64,000 nucleotides of DNA, taken from the NCBI GenBank assembly GCA_900618425.1, contig UZAN01039721.1, forward strand, positions 44,872-108,871. Reading direction: 5' to 3'. Below, one piece after another: positions 21,649 to 63,540 of the stretch; the first letter of the stretch is position 1; the number at the start of each line of letters is the position of its first letter. The notes under the pieces are model-generated. The model ran no database searches and was not told where the DNA came from. It was given only the letters and a program-made list of their open reading frames with translations. The DNA comes from Echinostoma caproni (Eukaryota; Platyhelminthes; Trematoda; Plagiorchiida; Echinostomatidae). Both the position numbers and the translations under genes were made by a program.

Positions 21649-21815
21649 TGTTGTGCCCCAGTTTCAGTATGGAGATAAGCACACAGTAAATTGAGCAACA
21701 CGTTTAATTTAAACAGTTAATACGTTGCTGGTTCCCAACCCGGGGAGTAAGCAGAAACGGGAATACGTAGGAATGCATGCAGGCAGGCAGGCTAACAAAG
21801 GCTCACAAGTCACAT
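21649..21815 (-). repeat. Partial LTR related to the gag-only element, fused to Gypsy gag
   Basis: From TGTTGTGCCCCAG onward this tracks 16749-16920: TAAACAG, caacccgggg against caaaccggga, and tacgtaggaatgcatgcaggcaggcag against tgtaggaacgcaggaaggcaggcag. Identity is moderate with small gaps. In the gag-only element this plus-strand order corresponds to a minus-oriented LTR, whereas the gag and pol that follow here are plus-oriented. The homology stops where the gag frame begins, so this is a junction between two elements or a rearranged copy. Confidence 0.65.
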
Positions 21816-21818
21816 TAC

Positions 21819-22575
21819 ATTCGTATACTGTCAATGGGGAAAAGAAATCCGCTTTTATTCTGAGTACTGTCGGTATAAATGCTTATACTCTAATCAAAAG
21901 CTTGTCTTATCCCTCTCTACCTGTTTTTGTACCGTTCGAGGATTTAAAATCCCTTCTTCTACAGCATATGAAGCCAACGAACTTTGAAGCCTCAGAGAGG
22001 GCAACACTTCATTCACTGGTATGTAATCCGAATCGGGTCATCCGTGAATTCCTCCTGGATTTGCTTACTCAAAATGCTAAGTGTGATTTTTGAGACTTAC
22101 TGAACATGCACTTGAGGGATTGATTGATTGTTGGCGTTTAAAATACTATTTTGAAAAACGAACTTCTGAAGATATCCAATCCTTTGTTTATAGATGTGCG
22201 GGCCCATTGTGAACAATACCAGGATGTTCTCATCACTACTTCATCCATGTCATCGACCATCGAATCTACAGCCATGTTTGATTCACTTAAAACCAAATCC
22301 ATAAACGTTCATGATACAGTCGGACGTTTCAAACCAGTTACACAACTTCGCTCACACAATGTGATACATTCGGATAAGTCATATGGCAATTGTGCATCCT
22401 GCCGCAAAACGTCATTCCAGACTCACATGTCGACGTCGTTACGCTCCGTGTCACAATTGTGGCAAAGCTGGTCATATTCATTCTGTTTTGCAGTACCGAA
22501 AATTGTCGTTTCATTTATTCCAAGGACTCCGAAGTGAGTGACATAGTCAACTACCTCCCATTCCGGTCACATTCG
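21819..22575 (+). pseudogene. gag of the Gypsy element, frameshifted
   Basis: This is the capsid and nucleocapsid precursor. The open part carries KKSAFILSTVGINAYTLIKS and FEDLKSLLLQHMKPTNFEAS, a common Gypsy gag pattern (loss of a seven-residue spacing is possible). The frame breaks at 22093, resumes at 22151 and reaches two zinc-binding regions: CASCRK, then CHNCGKAGHIHSV at 22449-22487. The last Cys of the second CCHC knuckle is in a different frame (TTTTG in place of TTTG), a one-base frameshift at 22486-22490. The N-terminal part of gag appears missing, replaced by the LTR-derived sequence. Confidence 0.75.
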
Positions 22576-22585
22576 TAAACACCTT

Positions 22586-23140
22586 TTCAGTTCCTTTGGT
22601 AACTCATTTCATTTTATTTTGGACACTGGTAATGTGGAGTCCTTAATTTCTGTTCATGATTTAAAACTGTTTGGTCCAGATGCCAAATTGCAGCCGTCCA
22701 CTGTCCCCATAAATGGCCTCACTGTACATTCATTGCCTGTTGTTGGTTCTTGTGAGATTTCATTCGGTGATGAGCATTCTAAAAGTGGTACCTGTAAATT
22801 CATCGTACTCAGGTCTGCCCCCTCTATACTAGGCTGGAAAGCTATGCAGACACTGAATATCAATCTTTCCTTGTTAACCTTTATTGATACTGAAAACGAG
22901 CTAAAGGATTTGATTAATAAATGCTCAAAGGCCAGTTGTGGCAAGAAAACTTCTTCAGTGAAACTACCAGTTAATGGAGATGCAGTTTTCCTCAAACTCC
23001 AAGTTATTCCATATGGCATTCGTGAACCTGTCATGAATGCATTGAACAACTTGTGTTCCAAAGGTGGCGTCTTCAGCATAAGGTACACAAATCCTCACAT
23101 CACTAAAATCGGACGGCAACAGTCCCAGAATAAGTGGTGA
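22586..23140 (+). pseudogene. Gypsy retropepsin (protease) domain
   Basis: The aspartic protease cuts the Gag-Pol polyprotein and acts as a dimer. The frame carries the active-site triad LDTG followed by NVESLIS at 22619, and further on PSILGWKAMQTLNI, the conserved ILG segment of retropepsins. Distances fit the family. The frame runs on to 23140 (PVNGDAVFLKLQVIPYGIRE, the linker leading into RT) and then shifts frame. This is the longest intact frame of the element at 173 codons. Confidence 0.85.
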
Positions 23141-23630
23141 CTGCGAAATCACTCTGAATGCAAAACTGTTAAAACAGACTTGTACAAATGTTGAATCAGA
23201 GAACATTCTGAGTACGTTGACTGGTTCTGAGGTCTTTTCCAAGGTTGGCTTGAAAGATGCTTATCCACAAATCCCGTTAGACGAAACCTCATCCACTTTG
23301 AAAACTATTAATACAAGTTTTGGTTTGTTCAGATATAAATTTCTGCCGTTTTGGTTATCCATTTATCCTGCCATATTTCAGCAAGTTATGAATGATAATA
23401 CTAGCTGTACGTCTAGCGTTGAATTATATCAAGATGACATTATTGTCCATGCCTCTGACAAATCCACTCATGACGCACGATTGTTTGAACACTTCCGTAG
23501 GTTTTCTGCCAAAAATCTTCCTGTTAATCTTAAGAACTGTTTACTTTCTGACTCTCATTTTGAATGTTTTGAATACCTTGTTAATGATAATCGTTACAAA
23601 TCTGACCCAAACCGTTTTTTCCTCTGACGA
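23141..23630 (+). pseudogene. Gypsy reverse transcriptase fragment
   Basis: The frame shows EVFSKVGLKDAYPQIPL (usual family form FSKIDLKSAYHQIPL), FGLFRYKFLPFWLSIYPAIF and the catalytic YQDDIIVHA at 23427-23453. The first catalytic Asp (usually in the DL of FSKIDL) is replaced by Gly in KVGLKD. The region between the protease linker and FSK is much shorter than usual, so the fingers subdomain is largely deleted. It is not functional. Confidence 0.85.
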
Positions 23631-24203
23631 AAGCCAAACCACCGTCAAACATACGCCAACTCAGATCCTTGATTGGAGCCCTAAAATACTACTCTAGATT
23701 TATCCCTAATTTCAGTCAGAAAGCTTCACCCCTATTTCTTCTCTCTTCTTCTGACAAATTGGTTTGGACGGATGCTTATGAAGATTGCTCACGTGAATTA
23801 CTAAATTTCCTGCAGACTGATGCTGCATTTTACCCATTCAATTGAAAAAATTCATTCTACTGCTATTATTGATGCATTATTGGTGCGATTCTTGAACAGA
23901 ATTGGCATCCAATTATTTGTGTCTCGCCGGTTAACAGCAGCTGAACGAGGCTATGCTCAAACTCATCGCGAAAAGTTAGCTGTATATTGGGCAGTCGAAC
24001 TCCTCCATAAGTTCCTTTTCGGTCATCATTTCACCATCGTCACGGACCATGTGGCCTTGAAGTTTATTTTCCACCTTGGGAAATCAGTTCTCATGAGCTC
24101 TTTAGATATGGTTCAGCGTTTAGGCATCTCACTCAGTGCTTATGATTACACAGTTGAACATCGCAGTGCCAAACATCCGATACGTGGATTATATTTCGTG
24201 TGA
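23631..24203 (+). pseudogene. Gypsy RNase H region, frameshifted
   Basis: RNase H removes the RNA strand from the cDNA hybrid. Pieces in three frames read RSLIGALKYYSRFIPNFSQK (the RT connection), KLVWTDAYEDC, then RRLTAAERGYAQTHREKLAV and FTIVTDHVALKFIF. The last two are the strongly conserved E-K-E/LA and TDH-x-L/AL-K blocks of Gypsy RNase H. At least two frameshifts interrupt it. Confidence 0.8.
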
Positions 24204-25260
24204 ATCGCTTGTGACTCGGAGAGCATCTTTGATTCACTACTGGAACAACCTCTCCCCGAGAGCCATCAAGAGCTTATTCGTGACACACGTCGTGATGACT
24301 GCTTTGCGGAAGGGTTGGAATCCACAGAATCTAAAGCAATTTCCATGTAACTGTGTTAGACGTGTTGAACTTCCAATTACGCCTGATAAATTACTGTATT
24401 TTAATGACAGAGTTGTCATTCCACCGACACTATGTGAAGCTACAATTCACGACCTACATTTCGGCCATCGTGGGATAGAAAAGATGAAGTCATTCACTAG
24501 GTAAACTTGTTGGTGTCCAAACATAGACGCCCACATATGCTTCAAAGCAAAAAAGCTGCTCAAAATACTATCACAAAGCTCAACAGTTTCCATCCAAGTT
24601 GGATCCGCGGCTTGTTTCAACTGAGGCTTGGCAACGTGTTCATGCTGATTACTGTGGTCCATTTCTCAATAAAATGTATGCTCTTGTTGTCTCTCTAAGT
24701 GCCCAGAAATATTTTTACTAAGTTACCTTAATCAGATTTTACGATTCATGCTTTGCGTGAAGTTTTCAGCCGGAAGGGTATTTCTGTTGTATTTGTTACT
24801 GATAATAGCAGTCACTTATCCACGAAAGGTGTTTCAGATTGACTGCATAACATTGAATGTAAACATTTGTTTACCGCTCCCAGACATTCGTACTCTAATG
24901 GACGAGTAGAGAATTTTGTAAGAATACTTCATAGTGCTATCGCTGTTTTGGACCCATCCACATTTCTTGAACTAGAGAGAGGTGTTAATCTGTTCCTTGT
25001 ACAATATTGTATTTCTGCTCATTAATCAACTAAAGAAACACATACTAAACTTTCAAAAGGTCGCAGTTTAAGATCCAATTTATTGTGTGGTAATTTTTCT
25101 GAAGTTGTATTTTTCCGTGGTAATGATTTGGGACCCTCTTCAGTAATTTTCCTAGACTTTAGGTCGGAGAATGGTTCAACTACTAGACACGGATGATTTA
25201 TCTGTATACAGAAGACATGTGAATCAAATTCGTTTTGACACTCCAACTTAGTCTGTTCCA
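24204..25260 (+). pseudogene. Gypsy integrase, with stops and frameshifts
   Basis: Integrase inserts the cDNA into the genome. Visible are the N-terminal zinc region (HDLHFGHRGIEKMKS; the two Cys are lost in the frame), HADYCGPF with the first catalytic Asp (24647), VTDNSSHLSTKG with the second (24801) and SNGRVENFVRILH with the Glu (24909). The chromodomain-less C-terminus ends RMVQLLDTDDLSVYRRHVNQ. All three catalytic acids survive, yet stops at several points and frame changes destroy continuity. Confidence 0.82.
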
Positions 25261-28300: not shown

Positions 28301-31209
28301 GGTTCTTTCTGCTCAATGTAGCCGCGATATGTTTATGACGTCCCACATATATGTTTTTTGACTGCATACGTGTTCCGTTAGCTCTCGAGTAAGTTAGACA
28401 AGGATTGAGGAAAAATGAACCATTATCAATATACTATAACGAGTTAAATACCATCAAAAAATAGCTTAACTAATATCGCGAGATTATTAAAGTGTAATTT
28501 CACTTAGATGATCCCTTTGCAAAGGAATGTATTCCTTTCTTTCTTGGATCGATTCAACACACTTATAAATGAGAACAAAGCCGGAACGCGAGGAAATGTA
28601 TTTACAATATATTACTTCGGAACATTTACATATACTGTTCGATTAGTCAGTTAAATAATAATAGACCCAGGCTGATGTTAATGAATGTCGATGGGCAAAA
28701 TGTTTGGTTTACAACAAACTCTGATTTCACGATAATTGGATAGGTAAAAACTGATTGAAAATGTGTAAACTGGATAAGATATGAAAGGTGGTAGTCAAGA
28801 ATAAAACATGTGTGAAAGTGTGCGAACAAATACAGTAAATGAGGATTGGAGGAGGGAGAAAAGAGAGTGTCAATTTGGAGATATGAGGAATGGTTTTTAT
28901 GGCCACGGTAACAGCAGCGCTTCAACCAGATTGCGTTGCTTGAAAACCCCCAGTTTCATGGTACTAATTCATATATATTCCGTAGTTGTTACGATCTTTT
29001 GACGTAACTCTTTTGATGTGGTTCTTAGGTGCAGTGAATAAACTAGTGAGTGATGTTTCTGGGTCAATACTGTGCCTCATATCGACCAAAGGGTACAGGA
29101 TTGAGTTGTTCAAGCTTCTCACTCTTCATTTCTGAAGAACGGCCGGATAATGTTCAGATATTCTCCTGGGCAAACGCCACGTTGTGTGTCTGATCTACCG
29201 AGCACTACAAGTGCACGTAAACGCATGTAGAACAAAGGGTTGGGACTGGTGAGGCAATTTATTCTTAAGCGGTTGAACAGTGAACGGCTAAGTCTTCAAT
29301 GAGAGTTATAAATGGACCTTGGAAAAACGTTTAGCAATGGCTTTAGATAACCAATATTCCAAGATTTCTAATGCCCTGTCTTCCTTGAAGGGGAATTTGA
29401 CAAAAGATTTCTTTTTAGTTGGTTTTGCATTTTCATCGTGTGGTTTTAATTCGAAATATCGTCAAAAAAGAGAGAAAAAATATAAATATAAATGTTTGCA
29501 CAATGAACCCAAGATATCAAGTTATTGCAAAGTAAAATCTGTGTACATAATTTGGGTTTTTTCGTTTCCGTACTATTGTTGACCCGCTTTAATCAACGAT
29601 CCACCGATGGGGGTTTACAATACACAGTTGTCAGTCACCAGAAAAAATAACTATTGTTGCTGAGTTAATACGACCTAGAAGCATGAAGCACACCACATCA
29701 CTATCCTAATTTTCGTCCCTCAAGACAATCTCTGTAAACTTTTAACTATTGAAAGTCAACGGTTTAGGCGTATCATACCTTTATGCGACCTTTGCAAACT
29801 GCAAAATTAATCACTGAAAACAATTTTTTTCATCTAAGTGTCCTAAAGGGTACATTTCATCACCTCAATAAAATTTGTTCATGGAATGCTTAACGGGAAA
29901 TTTAAACCATGCTCGATTGAAAAATGGTCACTCGGCTACTGTGTCGTTGAATCCGCTAGGGATTTCTTTTTCGACCAATGGGTGGTGGTCTCAGCAATCA
30001 CCAATCCTATATCTGTCCCAGTGAGTGCTCATGATTGACACGGTTAAGCATGTGAACTGTGATTGGTCAATCGTATCTAATCGCATCATCACAACTACTC
30101 CAACCGAGATATAAGAACGACAGTGAGGTTCTTCATGAGCACATATTAAGCATCCTTGACAATAGGTAAGGACACTGTAATTGAGGTGAGTTGACATGCG
30201 TGATTCTCTTTGTGACATTTTCCCTAATGTCCATTGTATCACATGTATCAGATGCGGTATGAACATTATTTCGTTTGATTTGACTGAAGAGGATGTAATT
30301 ACCCCTGATTTGCGGCAACTTATGTACCTTTACTGTGGTGAATATTATACTATTTGTTTTATTTTGATTACAAACAAACACGTTTTTCACATAGAAGAAA
30401 TAACTTAGTGAACAATCAGCAAACTACGTAATATGAACTGTATGGACTGTTGATAACAGCTGATATTTTTTGAGAGTGAAATCCGATTTGCCACACAGAA
30501 AAAGTGCATCAACAGTGGGAACACTTCCACATTTTTGGTGTTTACCGCTTTGTGAAACTTGAGTATTTCGTTTGTTCATTTGGTTGTTCCAAACAGACTG
30601 GGTACAACTGAGAAAACTGCGTTCTAGTTTCAGAAAGTTAGTTTAGTCAATGATGGCTGCCTACAGCCAAACGTTGAAAAAACAAAAGAAGAAGTTTTCC
30701 AGACTCGAAACTATCGGAAAAACGCTTTGAAAACCTTTTTCCATTTGGTCGGTAACTTTACTGTTGGAGGTTCATAGTTCATAAGTGAAGCGTAGTTGTT
30801 CTCTGGAGGTTTGTGTAGCTGTCACTATAACTTCTTCTGTCATCACATCGTGGATTTTTACCTGATAATGTTGCTGTTGTTGTAATTTGATTCAACTTTT
30901 AGCCGCTTTCTCTACTTAGATGAAAGGACAGTGCGTTCCGTGGAAGCCGAGACTAATTTAAAGTCTATTTATGCTTTATATTTGAACCAACCCCATGACG
31001 TTTTTAATATATTTAATGCATTTTTCTACATTACTGGGGATTCATAAATGTTTGGATAATTCCTAATATTGTCATCTACTGCAAACGGTTGCAGTCGTCA
31101 TTTCTATCCTCATTGGTTGACTACACCGAAAAAGCAAATTAAACTGTTTAGGCATCTTGTGTAGTGTGTATATTCTGTACTACAAATTCCGGCGTATTTC
31201 ATTTGTAGA
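25331..31209. other. Large stretch with no gene recognised
   Basis: 5.9 kb of AT-rich sequence. The 119-codon minus frame at 25678-25319 lies next to the Gypsy tail and shows no domain. A 3' LTR for that element was sought here without success. The 300 bp before 31210 form the upstream region of the secretory precursor. I see no clear TATA box, only a splice-acceptor-like sequence at 31193-31208. Confidence 0.4.
31193..31208 (+). promoter_or_regulatory. Possible splice (or trans-splice) acceptor before the neuropeptide ATG
   Basis: The sequence cgtatttcatttgtag ends in AG one base before the ATG at 31210 and is moderately pyrimidine-rich. It could close an intron in the 5' UTR or accept a flatworm spliced leader. 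Only transcript data could distinguish these. Confidence 0.35.
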
Positions 31210-31452
31210 ATGAAGATGATCGGATTGAAAATGATCCTGCTTGTTATCCTATTCGGCATGTACCTGCTGGAACAATCCGCAGAAGGCCGTGCCGTTGAAC
31301 GAAATCGTCTGTACAAGTGGAATGGTGACCCCGAGCTGCTATGGTATCAGCGACAGGTTGTGGATAATCACAGAGGCGCGGATTATTTCGAACCATGGTT
31401 TGTGACAAAACGTGATGCCTATGCCGACATGCCTTGGGGAAGAAGACGTTGA
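31210..31452 (+). CDS. Secreted neuropeptide-like precursor
   Basis: The 80-residue product is built like a neuropeptide prohormone. Residues 1 to about 26 form a signal peptide (MKMIGLK, then the hydrophobic MILLVILFGMYLL, then EQSAEG). A 40-residue middle piece follows, rich in aromatic residues (KWNGDPELLWYQRQ, YFEPWFVT). A dibasic KR sits at 67-68. The C-terminus is DAYADMPW followed by G and RRR. Processing would release the octapeptide DAYADMPW with a C-terminal amide donated by the Gly. Such peptides act on G-protein-coupled receptors after secretion from neurons. The ATG is the first of three close Met codons (residues 1, 3 and 8). No internal intron is needed. Candidate AATAAA lies at about 32143. 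I do not recognise a named family, though amidated Trp peptides are known in several animal groups. The architecture is convincing; expression is unproven. Confidence 0.75.
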   Translation: MKMIGLKMILLVILFGMYLLEQSAEGRAVERNRLYKWNGDPELLWYQRQVVDNHRGADYFEPWFVTKRDAYADMPWGRRR

Positions 31453-33092
31453 TGGTTTTCTAGTCCGATTCAAAACACGTACGGCTGTCACTGATTTCTC
31501 ACTAATTGAGCCACGTTCCTATGTACAACAATTGTTTTCTTGATAATGAAAAACAACAATTTTTCAAACTTTGTTGTTCTTTACCAATGATAGATTTTCA
31601 GCGTGTGAGTAAGAACTTTTGTTGAACCGAATCTTTGGTTAAAATTATCTTCATGTTTAGATAAACACATTTGATCAAGTCTATGTGGAACAATGCTCAT
31701 CGGTTCGATTACCGTGAAATCGTTCGTGGTTCGCTGGTTACCGAAAACTGTAGAGGTTAACTTCTTCTTCACCATAATATAAAGTGATTGTTTCCGAAAT
31801 TATGCCGGTGAACTTTTGTTACTATGTTTCAGACAGCATACTGAAGTTTCAACTAAAATATCTTATTTTATCCCAGGATGATTGCACCGATAATGCTGGG
31901 GGAGAGGTTGGCTTTGGCACACTGAAGAAGTAACAGTGTGCGAGACACGTTTACATTACGTATCCTCAATCGGTTATTCATGAATCGGCAATAATTGTTG
32001 TCACAGTGGATCGTCATAACAAAGCAAATATTTATTGATGCATGACAACTTCCACGTCATAAAGAAGAGATGGAGGAGGGCAGAGACTAACTTAAGTTGA
32101 CATACTTTCTGTATCAGGTTTGTTTAGGTCCATATTAGTGAGCAATAAATCGTAATAAGCCAGACTGTACTGAATAAACAAAATAAATAAATAAATGTCT
32201 TTTTACTTCCTTTTATTTATTTATTATACAAATGTGTAGTCAATTTTCAGGAACGAGAGCTGCGGCCGTACAAAGGCATCCTCGAAAAATACAGAAATGG
32301 GGAAGACGGGTGGCGATGAATACAGACAAATGAGAAATTATGGGTATTTTAAATGCTTAGATCATTTTACCAGTGAAATCTGTCTACAGGATGTAATTTG
32401 TAATCTACTAAACTAGGTTCTCGTCATGGGTTACATGCCACGTGTGAAAACTTTCGTGCGTTCTTTGGGCCGAACTTCAGTGCTTTCCTACAATGACAGG
32501 CTATTGCAGTTGCAGGTGACTTGGTAAATAACATGATTGTGATTGGAGTTAGTTTGGTTGTTTGAGACGTTCCATAGTTCATTCTCCTGGTCGTCAGTGG
32601 AACTCAGTCTCGCACTATATATTATTCATGGTTCCGTTTCAAATGGCGGTTTACTCTCTTGATTAAACGTTCCTCGTTGGTTGTTCAGAATATTATCTCG
32701 TGGTTAGCTGTATTAGCTGTTATTGCTTCGGGTTCACCTCCTGAGCTTCTTAAGTTCATCAAATGTTTGATCAACTGTGCACTGCTGACTTGCAGAAAAC
32801 AGTGCCTATTTCTGGAAACACTACTCCTTAGGATTAGAGGTTCTAGAGTGGAAATCATTCTTTTTGACCCAATATCGCATAAGAGATATTATTACGATTA
32901 CTATTGCTCAAAGAGTGTAATTAGACATTGCCGTTTGAAATAAATGCTCTAAATTTTATGAGAGAGAGAACACAAAATTCAAGTGGGACCACCCAGAAAA
33001 GTAATTCTTAGAAATGCACAGGTTAGAATAAAAGAGTTGAGAATGGATACGTTTTTCGTTTACCATGATGTGAATTTAATTTAGAGTACTAT
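31453..33092. other. 3' flank of the precursor, no further gene
   Basis: AT-rich, with an (AAAT)n run near 32180-32195. A 94-codon plus frame at 32659-32943 begins with a hydrophobic stretch (QNIISWLAVLAVIASGSP) that could be mistaken for a signal peptide. The rest is Lys/Arg-rich with no domain, so I do not call it. Confidence 0.4.
32143..32148 (+). terminator. Possible polyadenylation signal AATAAA
   Basis: This is the first canonical AATAAA downstream of the precursor stop, about 690 nt on. A weaker AATATA lies near 31774. The region around 32168-32195 repeats aaataaa. Assignment to the gene is inference from position. Confidence 0.3.
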
Positions 33093-57737: not shown

Positions 57738-58293
57738 GTGGCAGTGACTAAAACAAAGATGAAAGCTGGAGAAGCGGTCTCAGGATATTCAAGATCCTGG
57801 CGGGGTCTATACTACAAAGGAGAAGGATGCACGAGTAAATATTCCAAGCAACCAATACCTGCAAACAAGCGAAAGCATACATGCGGAATAGGTGGACCAA
57901 AGATAGTGACAACTCTGAAGCATGTTACACTGTCGGTCTCAAACAACTACAGTGTTACCGCTTCGTGGCAGACATAAACAATTGGACACTTCAACGGAAG
58001 TTGTTGGAGAATAAGGATCGTTCGTAGAGGCACAAAAGATCTGTGGACACCATGATGATTTGACAAAAGCGACTTCCAGTGAAGCAGTCACCATATTCCA
58101 GCGGCAGAAACAGAGATCAATCCGACCTCCAGTGGCCTAACACACATCGAAGTCACCTCATGACCCTTCCGTCAACGACAAACATATCAACCCATGCCTA
58201 ACATGTGGAGCTTACCTTTCGCGATCCACTTGTCGATTCCGTAACGCCAAGTGTCATGCGTGCGGGAAAACTGGCCATTCTCAGAGACTATGC
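57738..58293 (+). pseudogene. Gypsy gag with zinc knuckles, broken
   Basis: The nucleocapsid part reads CLTCGAYLSRSTC then FRNAKCHACGKTGHSQRLC (58195-58293). The second unit is a perfect C-x2-C-x4-H-x4-C knuckle. In the first, Leu stands where the His is expected. Just upstream, shifted frames give TLQRKLLENKDRS and EAQKICGHHDD, matching the end of the Gypsy capsid domain. Stops and frameshifts separate these from KAGEAVSGYSRSWRGL further upstream. It is an inactive copy of an RNA-binding structural protein. Confidence 0.7.
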
Positions 58294-58646
58294 AAACAGC
58301 CCTGCTGCAACCTAGTACAGCCACCAGCCGAAAAGGACACAAATCTCGTGATTTCCTTAGAAACCGAAAGTCAGTGAGCAAATCCTTATACGCACATGTG
58401 ATCCTACATTCCGGTGTGAAGCACAAACTCACTGTGGACACAGGAAGTACAGAATCTATATTTTCTACTGAAGTGCTTCGATCCATATGTCCCGAAACCA
58501 ATGTTCATCCAATGTGTATGCAGATTCGTGGTAGTGAGGATCACGATCTTCCATTGTTGGGGAAAATAACCTTATTTGTTCGATCAGTGAAAAACTACTC
58601 CATTACTATTCGCTTTCTGGTCGCTGGTTCTGAACGCCATACGTGA
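58294..58646 (+). pseudogene. Gypsy retropepsin domain
   Basis: The frame KSLYAHVILHSGVKHKLTVD leads into VDTGSTESIFSTEVL with the catalytic DTG at 58437-58445, then LPLLGKITLFVRSVKNYSIT and IRFLVAGSERHT. The text then stops where the ILG segment would be expected, so the domain is truncated. Its frame is shifted relative to the zinc knuckles, about 90 nt upstream. Confidence 0.8.
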
Positions 58647-60573: not shown

Positions 60574-61412
60574 CTAGTCACGTTTAATGTGCGTACTCTG
60601 ATGCGTATAGGACAACAGACGTGCTGATCTCGTACGCTCGAAACCCTAGACATCGATGTATGTTCCACACAAGAAACTCGCATTCAAAACTTCATTTCCA
60701 TTATCCGATTGACGTCCCCATCTAACCAATCTGTGAAGTTTCACTTTGGCCTCTATGAAGACCCTAAGGCTAAGGCTTTCGATATTGCTGTCCTCGGCGT
60801 AGCTCTCAGTTACAGACCTGAAGCCACCCTCCTGGATTAGATCCTAGTCGACAGGAGGTTGTACGCAGTGAGGCCCAGAGGTTCGTGAAAGGTAAGCAGC
60901 CGTCGCCACGATAGACGAAACTTGTTTGTCTTATCGGCGTGCGCTCCAACAGACTGCATCCCAGATGCAGTCAAAGACTAATTTTACCATAATCTACACG
61001 ACCTCTTGCGTAAAGCAACCTGGGCTAATATCGTGATTTTAGCAAGGGATATGAATGCTAGAGTAGACCGGTTGACTTCGAGTGAGATGCACCTGGGAGG
61101 TCCTTTCGTACTAGATTCCTGTCGCTCGGAAAACGGGAAGCGACTGTTGGTTCGGTGTTCCGACCACCGCTTGTTTCTCGCCAGTACGAATTTCAGACGC
61201 TCCAACTGCCGGTACGCCACTTGGCGTGCGCCCTCCTGGAATCAGAAACGGACACAGATTGACCACATCGCGATAAGCCACAGCAGCAGCATTCAAGACT
61301 GCCGATCGTACTGGAGCACTCCCCTCGAATCCGACCAAGCATTAGTATGCGCTAAGCTGTCCATGTGTTTCATTGAGCATCAAACGCACGACACAACAAC
61401 AGTTAGGTTGTG
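60574..61412 (+). pseudogene. LINE endonuclease domain
   Basis: This EEP-type nuclease nicks target DNA. It opens with LVTFNVRTLMRIGQQ, then DIDVCSTQETRIQ with the metal-binding Glu, FDIAVLGVALSYRPEA, ILARDMNARVDRL (usually GDFNA), ENGKRLLVRCSDHRLFLAST, CRYATWRAPSWNQKR and QIDHIAIS. The last catalytic block reads LESDQALVCAKL, with Gln in place of the usual His of SDH, which should abolish activity. Stops at 60619, 60838 and elsewhere confirm it is dead. Confidence 0.87.
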
Positions 61413-61754
61413 ATAAGCTGTCCAAACCGGCTTGTCTATTTGTCTTCCGAAAAGTACTAGCTGCAACGCTAGTACCAACCCCAACCGATGACGTTAACCA
61501 GCACTGATCGCTTACCAAGAATGCTTTGCATTCTTCTGGCTTAGTTAGTTGTAGTCTGACACGTCGCGCCGTGACACCCTGGATCTCTGCAGAGTCTCTA
61601 TACCTTCTTGACGCACGTCGGTCTATTCCGACGGGCAGCGAGCATAATGAAACACGACTCGTAAAGAAACGTGTGCCTAATGCAAGCCTATCCAGAGACC
61701 GCTAGACCTGATGGACTCAACGCGCGTCAGAGATGGAATGTGCTGCCGCCATGG

Positions 61755-61905
61755 GTTATTATAGTAAGCTGTTTTATTTTTAAATGAGAGCGATGAACTA
61801 ATATGTACAAAAGAAGATCATTGGTTATATAGGCTTCCGTCAGTAGCGTGTAGTCAGTAGCGGTGACGCGTAAGCATAAAATTGACCTAACCTTTCAAAT
61901 TTGAT
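61755..61905. repeat. AT-rich block inside the LINE
   Basis: The flanking text reads AAMGYY (the linker before the RT) on the left and resumes RT-side coding after about 150 bp of AT-rich sequence containing cagtagcg twice (at cgtcagtagcgtg and gtcagtagcggtg). The comparable place in the 2.9-5.4 kb copy (SA-stop-GNSLRLFQLIRS) has no such block. An insertion or replacement is likely. No target duplication was identified. Confidence 0.4.
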
Positions 61906-62830
61906 TGATCGTAGGTGTCCAGAAACTGTAACGCGCCTCTCCAGGGTAGGCGTCATTACGTATGCCTGGATCACCACAGAGATCCAAGCCTTGGGACGTC
62001 ATAAAGCACCGGGCTCTGACGGCCTTTCTCCAGTCCTATTTAAAGATTGTGGAATTAAGCTTATTAGAGAACTACAAGTTCTGTGCTCTAAAATTTGGAA
62101 CACTGAGCAAGTCCCCTTTTCGTGAGGGGAATCGATTGTTGTCCCCATCTTCAAAAAGGGCCCGCTCGGTGACCGCGCCAAACATAGGGGTATAAGCCTT
62201 ATTCCAATAGAGTCAAAGTTGCTGGCCTTCGTCATTCTCTGCCGATTGTACATTATGCGTGAGGAGCAGACCCGCGAAGATCAGGCTGAGTTTCGTGCCA
62301 GTCGGGGATGCATCGATCAAATCTTCATCCTCCGACAGCTGCCAGAGCACCGTCATGCCTGACAAAGACCAACGATCATTGTATTCGTAGACATCCGTGC
62401 GGCCTTCGACTCTGTCTATAGGACCGCACTATGGAACTATTTGTTGAGGAAGGGAGTACCAGGGAAGTATGTGTCGATCCTCAAAGAGTTATGTCGTCAT
62501 ACCTCAGTTTGGGTTGGGCCTTTGTCCAACTTTCGCCAACCCTTTCCACCCCCAGTGGAGTTCGGCAAGGCTGCTCTTTATCCCCATTTCTTTTCAACTT
62601 CGCCGTAGAAGATGTTTTACAGAATGCTTTGTTTGGTCTAACAAACGCTTGAGTCGAGCTCCTCCCAGGGGAACAGAGTTCTCGACTTGGAATATGTTGA
62701 TGACATCACCTTGCTGGGTGACAACACACAGACAGTCCAAAACACTTTGAACCGCTTGACGGTCGAGGTATCCAGGTATGGTATATGCTTTGCCCCTTCT
62801 AAGTGTAAAGTTCTTGTTCAAGACTGGTAG
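61906..62830 (+). pseudogene. LINE reverse transcriptase
   Basis: RT blocks in order are KAPGSDGLSPVLFKD, VVPIFKKGPLGDRAKHRGIS, EFRASRGCIDQIFILRQL, IIVFVDIRAAFDSV (first catalytic Asp, about 62390), VRQGCSLSPFLFNFAVEDVL and LEYVDDITLLGDN with YVDD at 62693-62704. All three catalytic acids are kept. A TGA at about 62123, another stop near 62360 and a frame change near 62650 break it. It is far better preserved than the copy at 3.3-4.3 kb. Confidence 0.9.
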
Positions 62831-62844
62831 GAACCTGTGCCTGT

Positions 62845-63540
62845 ACTCCCTCTCTATGGTGGTCAGCTGGAAGTAACTGGGAGCTTTAAGTACCTCGGAG
62901 CTTGATCGCAGCCGGTGGGGGTGTTGGGGAGGAGATCACATCACGAATAGCGAAAGTTACAGTAGCATTCGCCAACCTGGGGCACCTGTTGCACCGCCAT
63001 GACACCCGACTGTCCCTAAAGGGTAGGGTGTACGTTGCCGCGGTTAGTAGCGTTCTCCTTTACGGTTGCGAGACCTGGCGCCTCCGCGGTGAGGATGCTA
63101 GTCCACTTTCGGTGTTTGACCACCGGTTTCTGCGAAGCATTGCTCGTGGCTGGTGGGAAAACCGGGTGAATAATGACGCATTTCGTCGTCGTGTGCTACA
63201 GGCGGATAGTTGTTCTCTAAAAGAAGTATTCGGTCTATTCCACCTCCGATGCATTGGTCATGTTTTGAGTATGTCTGCTCATCGACTACCTTTCCGTGCT
63301 CTCTTCGCACGTGCCAGGCAAGGTTGAAAGAAACGGCGTGGTGGTCAGACCATAACATGAGGTAGAAGTATGAAGAAGCTAGTTTCAGCTTCAGCTTCGG
63401 TTGGTGCAGCCCACCTTCCAGGTTGGGGTCCAAGGGATGAGGATTGTCGTTGGTTAGAGACGCTGAGACGTATGGCTCAGAATAGAAGTCAGTGGCACGA
63501 ATGTTGTATGTTCTGTCTGTCGAAATCCTATGCCCCGTAA
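62845..63540 (+). pseudogene. LINE C-terminal tail
   Basis: After the RT the text reads LEVTGSFKYLGA-stop, then GEEITSRIAKVTVAFANLGH, SVLLYGCETWRL, SVFDHRFLRSIA, GWWENRVNNDAFRRRV and LFHLRCIGHVLSM, then after a stop AAHLPGWGPRDEDCRWLETL and RMAQNRSQWHECC. This tail is shared by many flatworm LINEs and has no known enzymatic role. The main frame is open over 141 codons (62902-63327). Confidence 0.85.

What the first reader, a model, noticed from the sequence alone, without database searches (positions are those of the whole stretch)
31210..31452. Short precursor predicted to release an amidated octapeptide DAYADMPW-amide
Seen directly: 80 codons with a hydrophobic N-terminus, KR at residues 67-68 and DAYADMPW-GRRR at the very C-terminus. 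Established: proprotein convertases cut at dibasic sites, carboxypeptidase trims Arg, and PAM converts C-terminal Gly to an amide. Inference: a bioactive Trp-amide peptide with one copy per precursor. I cannot assign it to a named flatworm family, and the 40-residue aromatic-rich middle piece could be a second peptide. It is the only non-mobile gene I can support in 64 kb.
Basis: partly seen in the sequence, partly recalled or inferred. Interest (0 to 1): 0.75.

Follow-up and report, generated by a model that had tools for sequence, protein, structure and literature searches.

The report
Fluke PW-amide neuropeptide gene (NPP-5 type)
This short gene in a flatworm genome, apparently a fluke, very probably makes a small amidated nerve peptide of a family already known from schistosomes and planarians, so it is a real gene and a useful new member, but not a new kind of thing.

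Summary
Chance is unlikely: the combined architecture occurs once in the window against a mean of 0.02 per simulated window, and a motif taken from published peptides occurs in none of 200 simulations. DAYADMPW shares 5, 5, 4 and 5 of 8 residues with them. Both schistosome peptides were supported by mass spectrometry and one altered cercarial behaviour. No second NPP-5-like precursor was seen in the 426.5-Mb assembly, within the limits of the searches. A retroelement piece in the window has Schistosoma turkestanicum as its only named relative, consistent with a trematode. The architecture differs: one amidated copy here, two peptides reported in schistosomes and planarian; a decayed second copy is only weakly suggested. 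A probable new member of a known family; expression and processing are not shown.

The parts
31210..31287 (+). N-terminal hydrophobic leader, residues 1-26 (probable signal peptide; A-E-G before R27 fits the -3/-1 rule, recalled)
   Evidence: sequence; best 12-residue Kyte-Doolittle mean 2.93. No signal-peptide predictor was available
31288..31407 (+). 40-residue aromatic-rich spacer, residues 27-66; no dibasic site inside
31378..31398 (+). ADYFEPW, possible decayed second PW peptide, followed by F and not G, so it could not be amidated there
   Evidence: as good or better in 118 of 5000 spacer shuffles against AAYMDLPW, 673 of 5000 against the window peptide; weak
31408..31413 (+). KR dibasic cleavage site (residues 67-68)
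31414..31437 (+). DAYADMPW, predicted mature octapeptide (residues 69-76)
31438..31440 (+). Gly77, amide donor
   Evidence: amidation inferred
31441..31449 (+). RRR, basic residues expected to be trimmed
   Evidence: trimming inferred
31450..31452 (+). TGA stop codon
32144..32195 (+). cluster of AATAAA signals (starting at 32144, 32173, 32182, 32190), possible 3' end of the transcript
   Evidence: sequence only, no transcript evidence

Best explanation
A protein-coding gene for a flatworm neuropeptide precursor of the NPP-5 (PW-amide) family. The leader directs the precursor into the secretory pathway (inferred). A PC2-type convertase cuts after K67-R68, a carboxypeptidase removes the three C-terminal Arg, and the PHM/PAL (PAM) enzymes turn Gly77 into an amide, releasing DAYADMPW-NH2 (calculated [M+H]+ 967.398). 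The peptide is then released by neurons and acts on a rhodopsin-type GPCR to modulate movement and possibly reproduction (inferred from schistosome NPP-5).
For: ORF architecture and its improbability. Published NPP-5 peptides AAYMDLPWa, AAYIDLPWa, PNWKDMPWa and SAWRDMPWa; with the window peptide, D, P and W are invariant in 5 of 5 sequences; the matches are reached by 10, 10, 16 and 4 of 20,000 shuffles of the octapeptide. MS support for both schistosome peptides and a behavioural effect of AAYMDLPW-NH2 on cercariae at 3 mg/mL. Fasciola hepatica has PC2, CPE, PHM and PAL genes. The protein occurs once in the assembly and no second precursor-like match was recognised. The only named relative of a retroelement piece in the window is Schistosoma turkestanicum.
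Against: No transcript or peptide evidence could be obtained. No homologous precursor was found among 5.8 billion proteins by single sequence or by the small alignment, although that collection does hold at least one Schistosoma protein; the search needs shared exact words, so this is weak evidence. Family membership rests on the octapeptide and the architecture, not on a full-length alignment. One amidated copy where two peptides are reported in schistosomes and planarian. A look-alike, KR-FDCVNIPW-G-KR in L009, arises in repeated DNA without a leader, so PWG with basic residues alone does occur by chance at genome scale. Searches of this genome for processing enzymes did not complete.
Confidence: 0.91

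Rival explanations
1. A chance ORF in repeat-rich non-coding DNA that happens to look like a precursor.
For: 49 ATG ORFs of at least 75 aa in the window; no homologue of the full protein found; no Pfam family above cut-off; a partial look-alike exists in a repeat at L009.
Against: 0.02 such architectures per simulated window and 0 motif hits in 200 simulations; the octapeptide matches an independently published flatworm family; no similar DNA elsewhere in the window.
Confidence: 0.04
2. A decaying paralogue or pseudogene of a two-copy NPP-5 gene, with the first copy already lost (ADYFEPWF), and no longer expressed.
For: ADYF-EPW resembles AAYMDLPW weakly (118 of 5000 shuffles); one copy instead of two.
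Against: The frame, leader, KR and GRRR are intact; no intact second NPP-5-like gene was recognised in the 426.5-Mb assembly, though a motif split by an intron, withheld, or in an assembly gap would be missed.
Confidence: 0.05
3. An unrelated secreted peptide that has converged on the xxPW-GRRR ending.
For: Only eight residues carry the family signal; the spacer could not be compared with any NPP-5 precursor.
Against: Same peptide length (8 residues), same D-[LM]-P-W end, an aromatic at position 3 as in the others, and apparently the same phylum.
Confidence: 0.04

Closest known systems
NPP-5 of Schistosoma mansoni/S. japonicum (AAYMDLPW-NH2, AAYIDLPW-NH2)
   Same: 8-residue peptide, xAYxD[ML]PW, C-terminal amide.
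   Different: Two distinct peptides reported there, one here; D at position 1 and A at position 4 here. Full precursor sequence not available to compare.
npp-5 of Schmidtea mediterranea (PNWKDMPWa, SAWRDMPWa)
   Same: DMPW-amide end identical to the window peptide.
   Different: Trp instead of Tyr at position 3; two peptides; free-living flatworm.
'PWamide' precursor of S. mansoni miracidia (PMC4723143; Smp_340860 in PMC11349301)
   Same: Small precursor (111 aa, 30-residue signal) named for a PW-amide end; expressed in the brain of the miracidium.
   Different: 80 aa here; whether it is the same gene as Sm-npp-5 (Smp_052880) was not established here.
GVWSNDPWamide of the polyclad Maritigrella crozieri
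   Same: Flatworm PW-amide with an aromatic and an acidic residue upstream.
   Different: Ends in NDPW instead of DMPW, with the acidic residue next to PW; relationship not shown.

Membership tests
Flatworm NPP-5 / PW-amide precursors | Octapeptide with aromatic (Y/W) at 3, D at 5, L/M at 6, PW at 7-8 | tested here: met
   DAYADMPW against the four published peptides: 5, 5, 4, 5 of 8 identical; D, P and W invariant in 5 of 5
Flatworm NPP-5 / PW-amide precursors | Gly plus basic residues after the peptide (amidation) and a basic cleavage site before it | tested here: met
   KR-DAYADMPW-G-RRR-stop
Flatworm NPP-5 / PW-amide precursors | N-terminal signal peptide | tested here: inconclusive
   Hydrophobic leader with best 12-mer mean 2.93; no signal-peptide predictor run
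Flatworm NPP-5 / PW-amide precursors | Two PW-amide peptides per gene (as reported in Schistosoma and Schmidtea; not known to be obligatory) | tested here: not met
   One amidated copy; the possible second copy lacks Gly and is weak
Flatworm NPP-5 / PW-amide precursors | Alignment of the whole precursor with known members | tested here: inconclusive
   No known precursor was retrieved in 2 protein searches; no full precursor sequence was seen in the passages and sections read
Flatworm NPP-5 / PW-amide precursors | Neuronal expression and release of the amidated peptide | not testable with these tools
   No RNA or peptide data for this organism

The most novel reading that the evidence does not exclude
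This lineage has reduced NPP-5 to a single amidated peptide: the first copy decayed in place (ADYFEPWF, amidation Gly lost) and the sole remaining ligand carries an N-terminal Asp and a small residue at position 4. A receptor that elsewhere meets two near-identical ligands would then be served by one, giving a natural test of whether the two copies matter.
Probability: 0.25. Interest if true: 0.35.

Novelty: new member of a known kind. Interest (0 to 1): 0.25.

Why it matters
It adds a sequence to a flatworm peptide family, narrows which positions stay fixed (D5, P7, W8 in the five peptides compared) and suggests that one amidated copy per gene can occur. GPCRs are described as promising anthelmintic targets (abstract of PMC10783048 in the listing), and an NPP-5 peptide has a measured behavioural effect in cercariae.

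Tried and rejected
Protein search with P0001 and with alignment A1: in each only the window's own prediction P0002 came back. Loci in genome contigs and viral contigs: 18 and 22 pattern stretches, none confirmed. Pfam on P0001: one sub-threshold hit to a transposase helix-turn-helix model (E 0.17, 12.5 bits against a cut-off of 27.9), rejected. Rfam (gathering thresholds) and tRNA scans of the window: nothing. Bacterial promoter/terminator scan of 30200-32400: not meaningful for a flatworm. A splice acceptor just before the ATG (TTTGTAG|A): ranks 15th of 89 YAG sites in 29.0-33.0 kb by a home-made pyrimidine score, so not distinctive. Second copy in the spacer: five comparisons (118, 119, 673, 2643 and 2998 of 5000 shuffles as good or better), not significant after allowing for five tries. 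Similar DNA to 30700-32300 elsewhere in the window: none at E 0.01. L009 (KR-FDCVNIPW-G-KR, four residues before a stop) as a second PW-amide gene: from its first Met the frame starts MKPWHTLHC, with no hydrophobic leader, and L009 and L013 share about 800 and 200 bp at 76% and 74% identity, so it lies in repeated DNA; rejected, though not searched further. McVeigh et al. 2009, which from recall first named npp-5 (seen here only in a reference list), is not held. 'SmNPP-5' in several papers of the listing is, from recall, a tegument phosphodiesterase with the same abbreviation; not related. Passages on Taenia crassiceps npp genes (PMC11196405) did not mention npp-5.

Full report
Observation. 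The frame 31210-31452 (+) reads MKMIGLKMILLVILFGMYLLEQSAEGRAVERNRLYKWNGDPELLWYQRQVVDNHRGADYFEPWFVTKRDAYADMPWGRRR-stop, exactly as described. An in-frame stop lies at 31162-31164, and the 15 codons between it and the ATG hold no other Met. Length is unremarkable (49 ATG ORFs of at least 75 aa), but the combination is not. Of 217 ATG ORFs of 40-200 aa, 11 have a hydrophobic N-terminus, 2 end in G[KR]+, and only this one has both, with an upstream dibasic as well; 200 first-order Markov simulations gave means of 0.065 and 0.02. In six frames of the window, PWG[KR][KR] and D[LM]PW each occur once, here.

Family. Collins et al. 2010 (PMC2953531; outline, sections 8 and 14, and passages seen) list for npp-5 AAYMDLPWa and AAYIDLPWa in Schistosoma and PNWKDMPWa and SAWRDMPWa in Schmidtea, and name planarian npp-5 among genes expressed in cells around the ventral midline. 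DAYADMPW aligns without gaps: 5, 5, 4 and 5 of 8 identical; D, P and W invariant in all five. Shuffling the octapeptide reaches these scores in 10, 10, 16 and 4 of 20,000 trials.

What is known of the family. In S. mansoni cercariae both NPP-5 peptides were supported by LC-MS/MS, and synthetic AAYMDLPW-NH2 at 3 mg/mL raised spinning and stopping in acute exposure and passive behaviour over 360 min; the abstract says that only a different peptide had the same effect at 0.1 mg/mL (PMC9495596, passages). NPP5b was among six ligands giving the strongest growth with SmGPCR9 in a yeast two-hybrid screen of 47 (PMC7284817, section 17). In the later study the tested ligands other than NPP1a and NPP24 internalised the receptor, but only NPP26a and NPP41 gave reproducible G-protein signals, so SmGPCR9 is not an established NPP-5 receptor (PMC13367911, passages). 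Sm-npp-5 transcripts dominate in whole adults with a pairing bias (PMC4976352, passages). A 'PWamide' precursor of 111 aa with a 30-residue signal is listed as expressed in miracidia, cercariae and adults (PMC4723143, passages), and PWamide Smp_340860 marks a neuron subcluster expressed in the brain of the miracidium (PMC11349301, passages). Fasciola hepatica has genes for PC2, CPE, PHM and PAL (PMC9639813, passages).

Genome context. The window is G000:C778:44872-108871 of an unnamed 426.5-Mb assembly in 12,689 contigs; the protein is found once. A degenerate DNA pattern for [YW]xD[LMIF]PWG plus two codons that include Lys and Arg hits twice, here and at L002, which reads YNDFPWGNK and is not a precursor; the reversed control pattern hits once. 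A wider pattern gives 13 hits against 12 for the control, that is, background. In one search, of these 13 only the window's own lies in a leader-led frame ending in the peptide, Gly and basic residues. Two (L006, L010) have a stop within the motif. The other ten each lack the aromatic, the acidic residue or the two basic residues. The nearest look-alike is L009: KR-FDCVNIPW-G-KR, four residues before a stop, an eight-residue peptide between dibasics, with Cys at position 3 and Asn at 5. From its first Met the frame starts MKPWHTLHC, without a hydrophobic leader, and the locus shares about 800 and 200 bp at 76% and 74% identity with L013, so it lies in repeated DNA and I do not count it as a gene. 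L014 (CDEVPWGRRK) has no Met before the motif in its open stretch and no C-terminal position. A motif split by an intron, withheld, or lying in a gap would be missed.

Organism. A LINE-like piece at 62890-63324 has 25 relatives in the protein collection; the only one with an organism name is Schistosoma turkestanicum (60% identity). Together with the peptide family this supports a trematode; the species is not identified.

Architecture. Only one amidated peptide is encoded. The spacer has no dibasic site. ADYF-EPW followed by F resembles AAYMDLPW, but shuffled spacers do as well in 118 of 5000 trials, and against the window's own peptide in 673 of 5000. A decayed second copy is therefore a suggestion only. 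The middle piece as a second bioactive peptide has no support.

Mechanism. Shown: the reading frame, the processing sites and the match to MS-supported peptides of relatives. Inferred: secretion, cleavage at K67-R68, trimming of RRR, amidation from Gly77, release as DAYADMPW-NH2 and action through a GPCR. Not shown: transcription, translation, receptor.

Verdict. Very probably a real gene, npp-5 of this flatworm. It is a new member of a known family, of modest interest.

Noticed in passing
window 21713-24504 (+): Broken retroelement: reverse transcriptase (PF00078, E 1.8e-12, open stretch 23082-23627) and RNase H (PF17917, E 5.6e-16, open stretch 23805-24203) lie in separate open stretches, so a decayed copy.
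   Followed up: partly
window 60982-63327 (+): LINE-like stretches; no Pfam match for the two pieces scanned, but 62890-63324 has 25 relatives, 14 of them carrying PF20049 and the only named one from Schistosoma turkestanicum.
   Followed up: partly
window 58245-58646 (+): Open stretch with VDTGSTESIFS, which looks like a retroelement aspartic protease start (recalled motif); no Pfam match at E 0.01.
   Followed up: no
L009 1264-1542 (+), match at 1501: KR-FDCVNIPW-G-KR just before a stop, resembling an amidated octapeptide, in DNA shared at about 75% identity with L013.
   Followed up: partly
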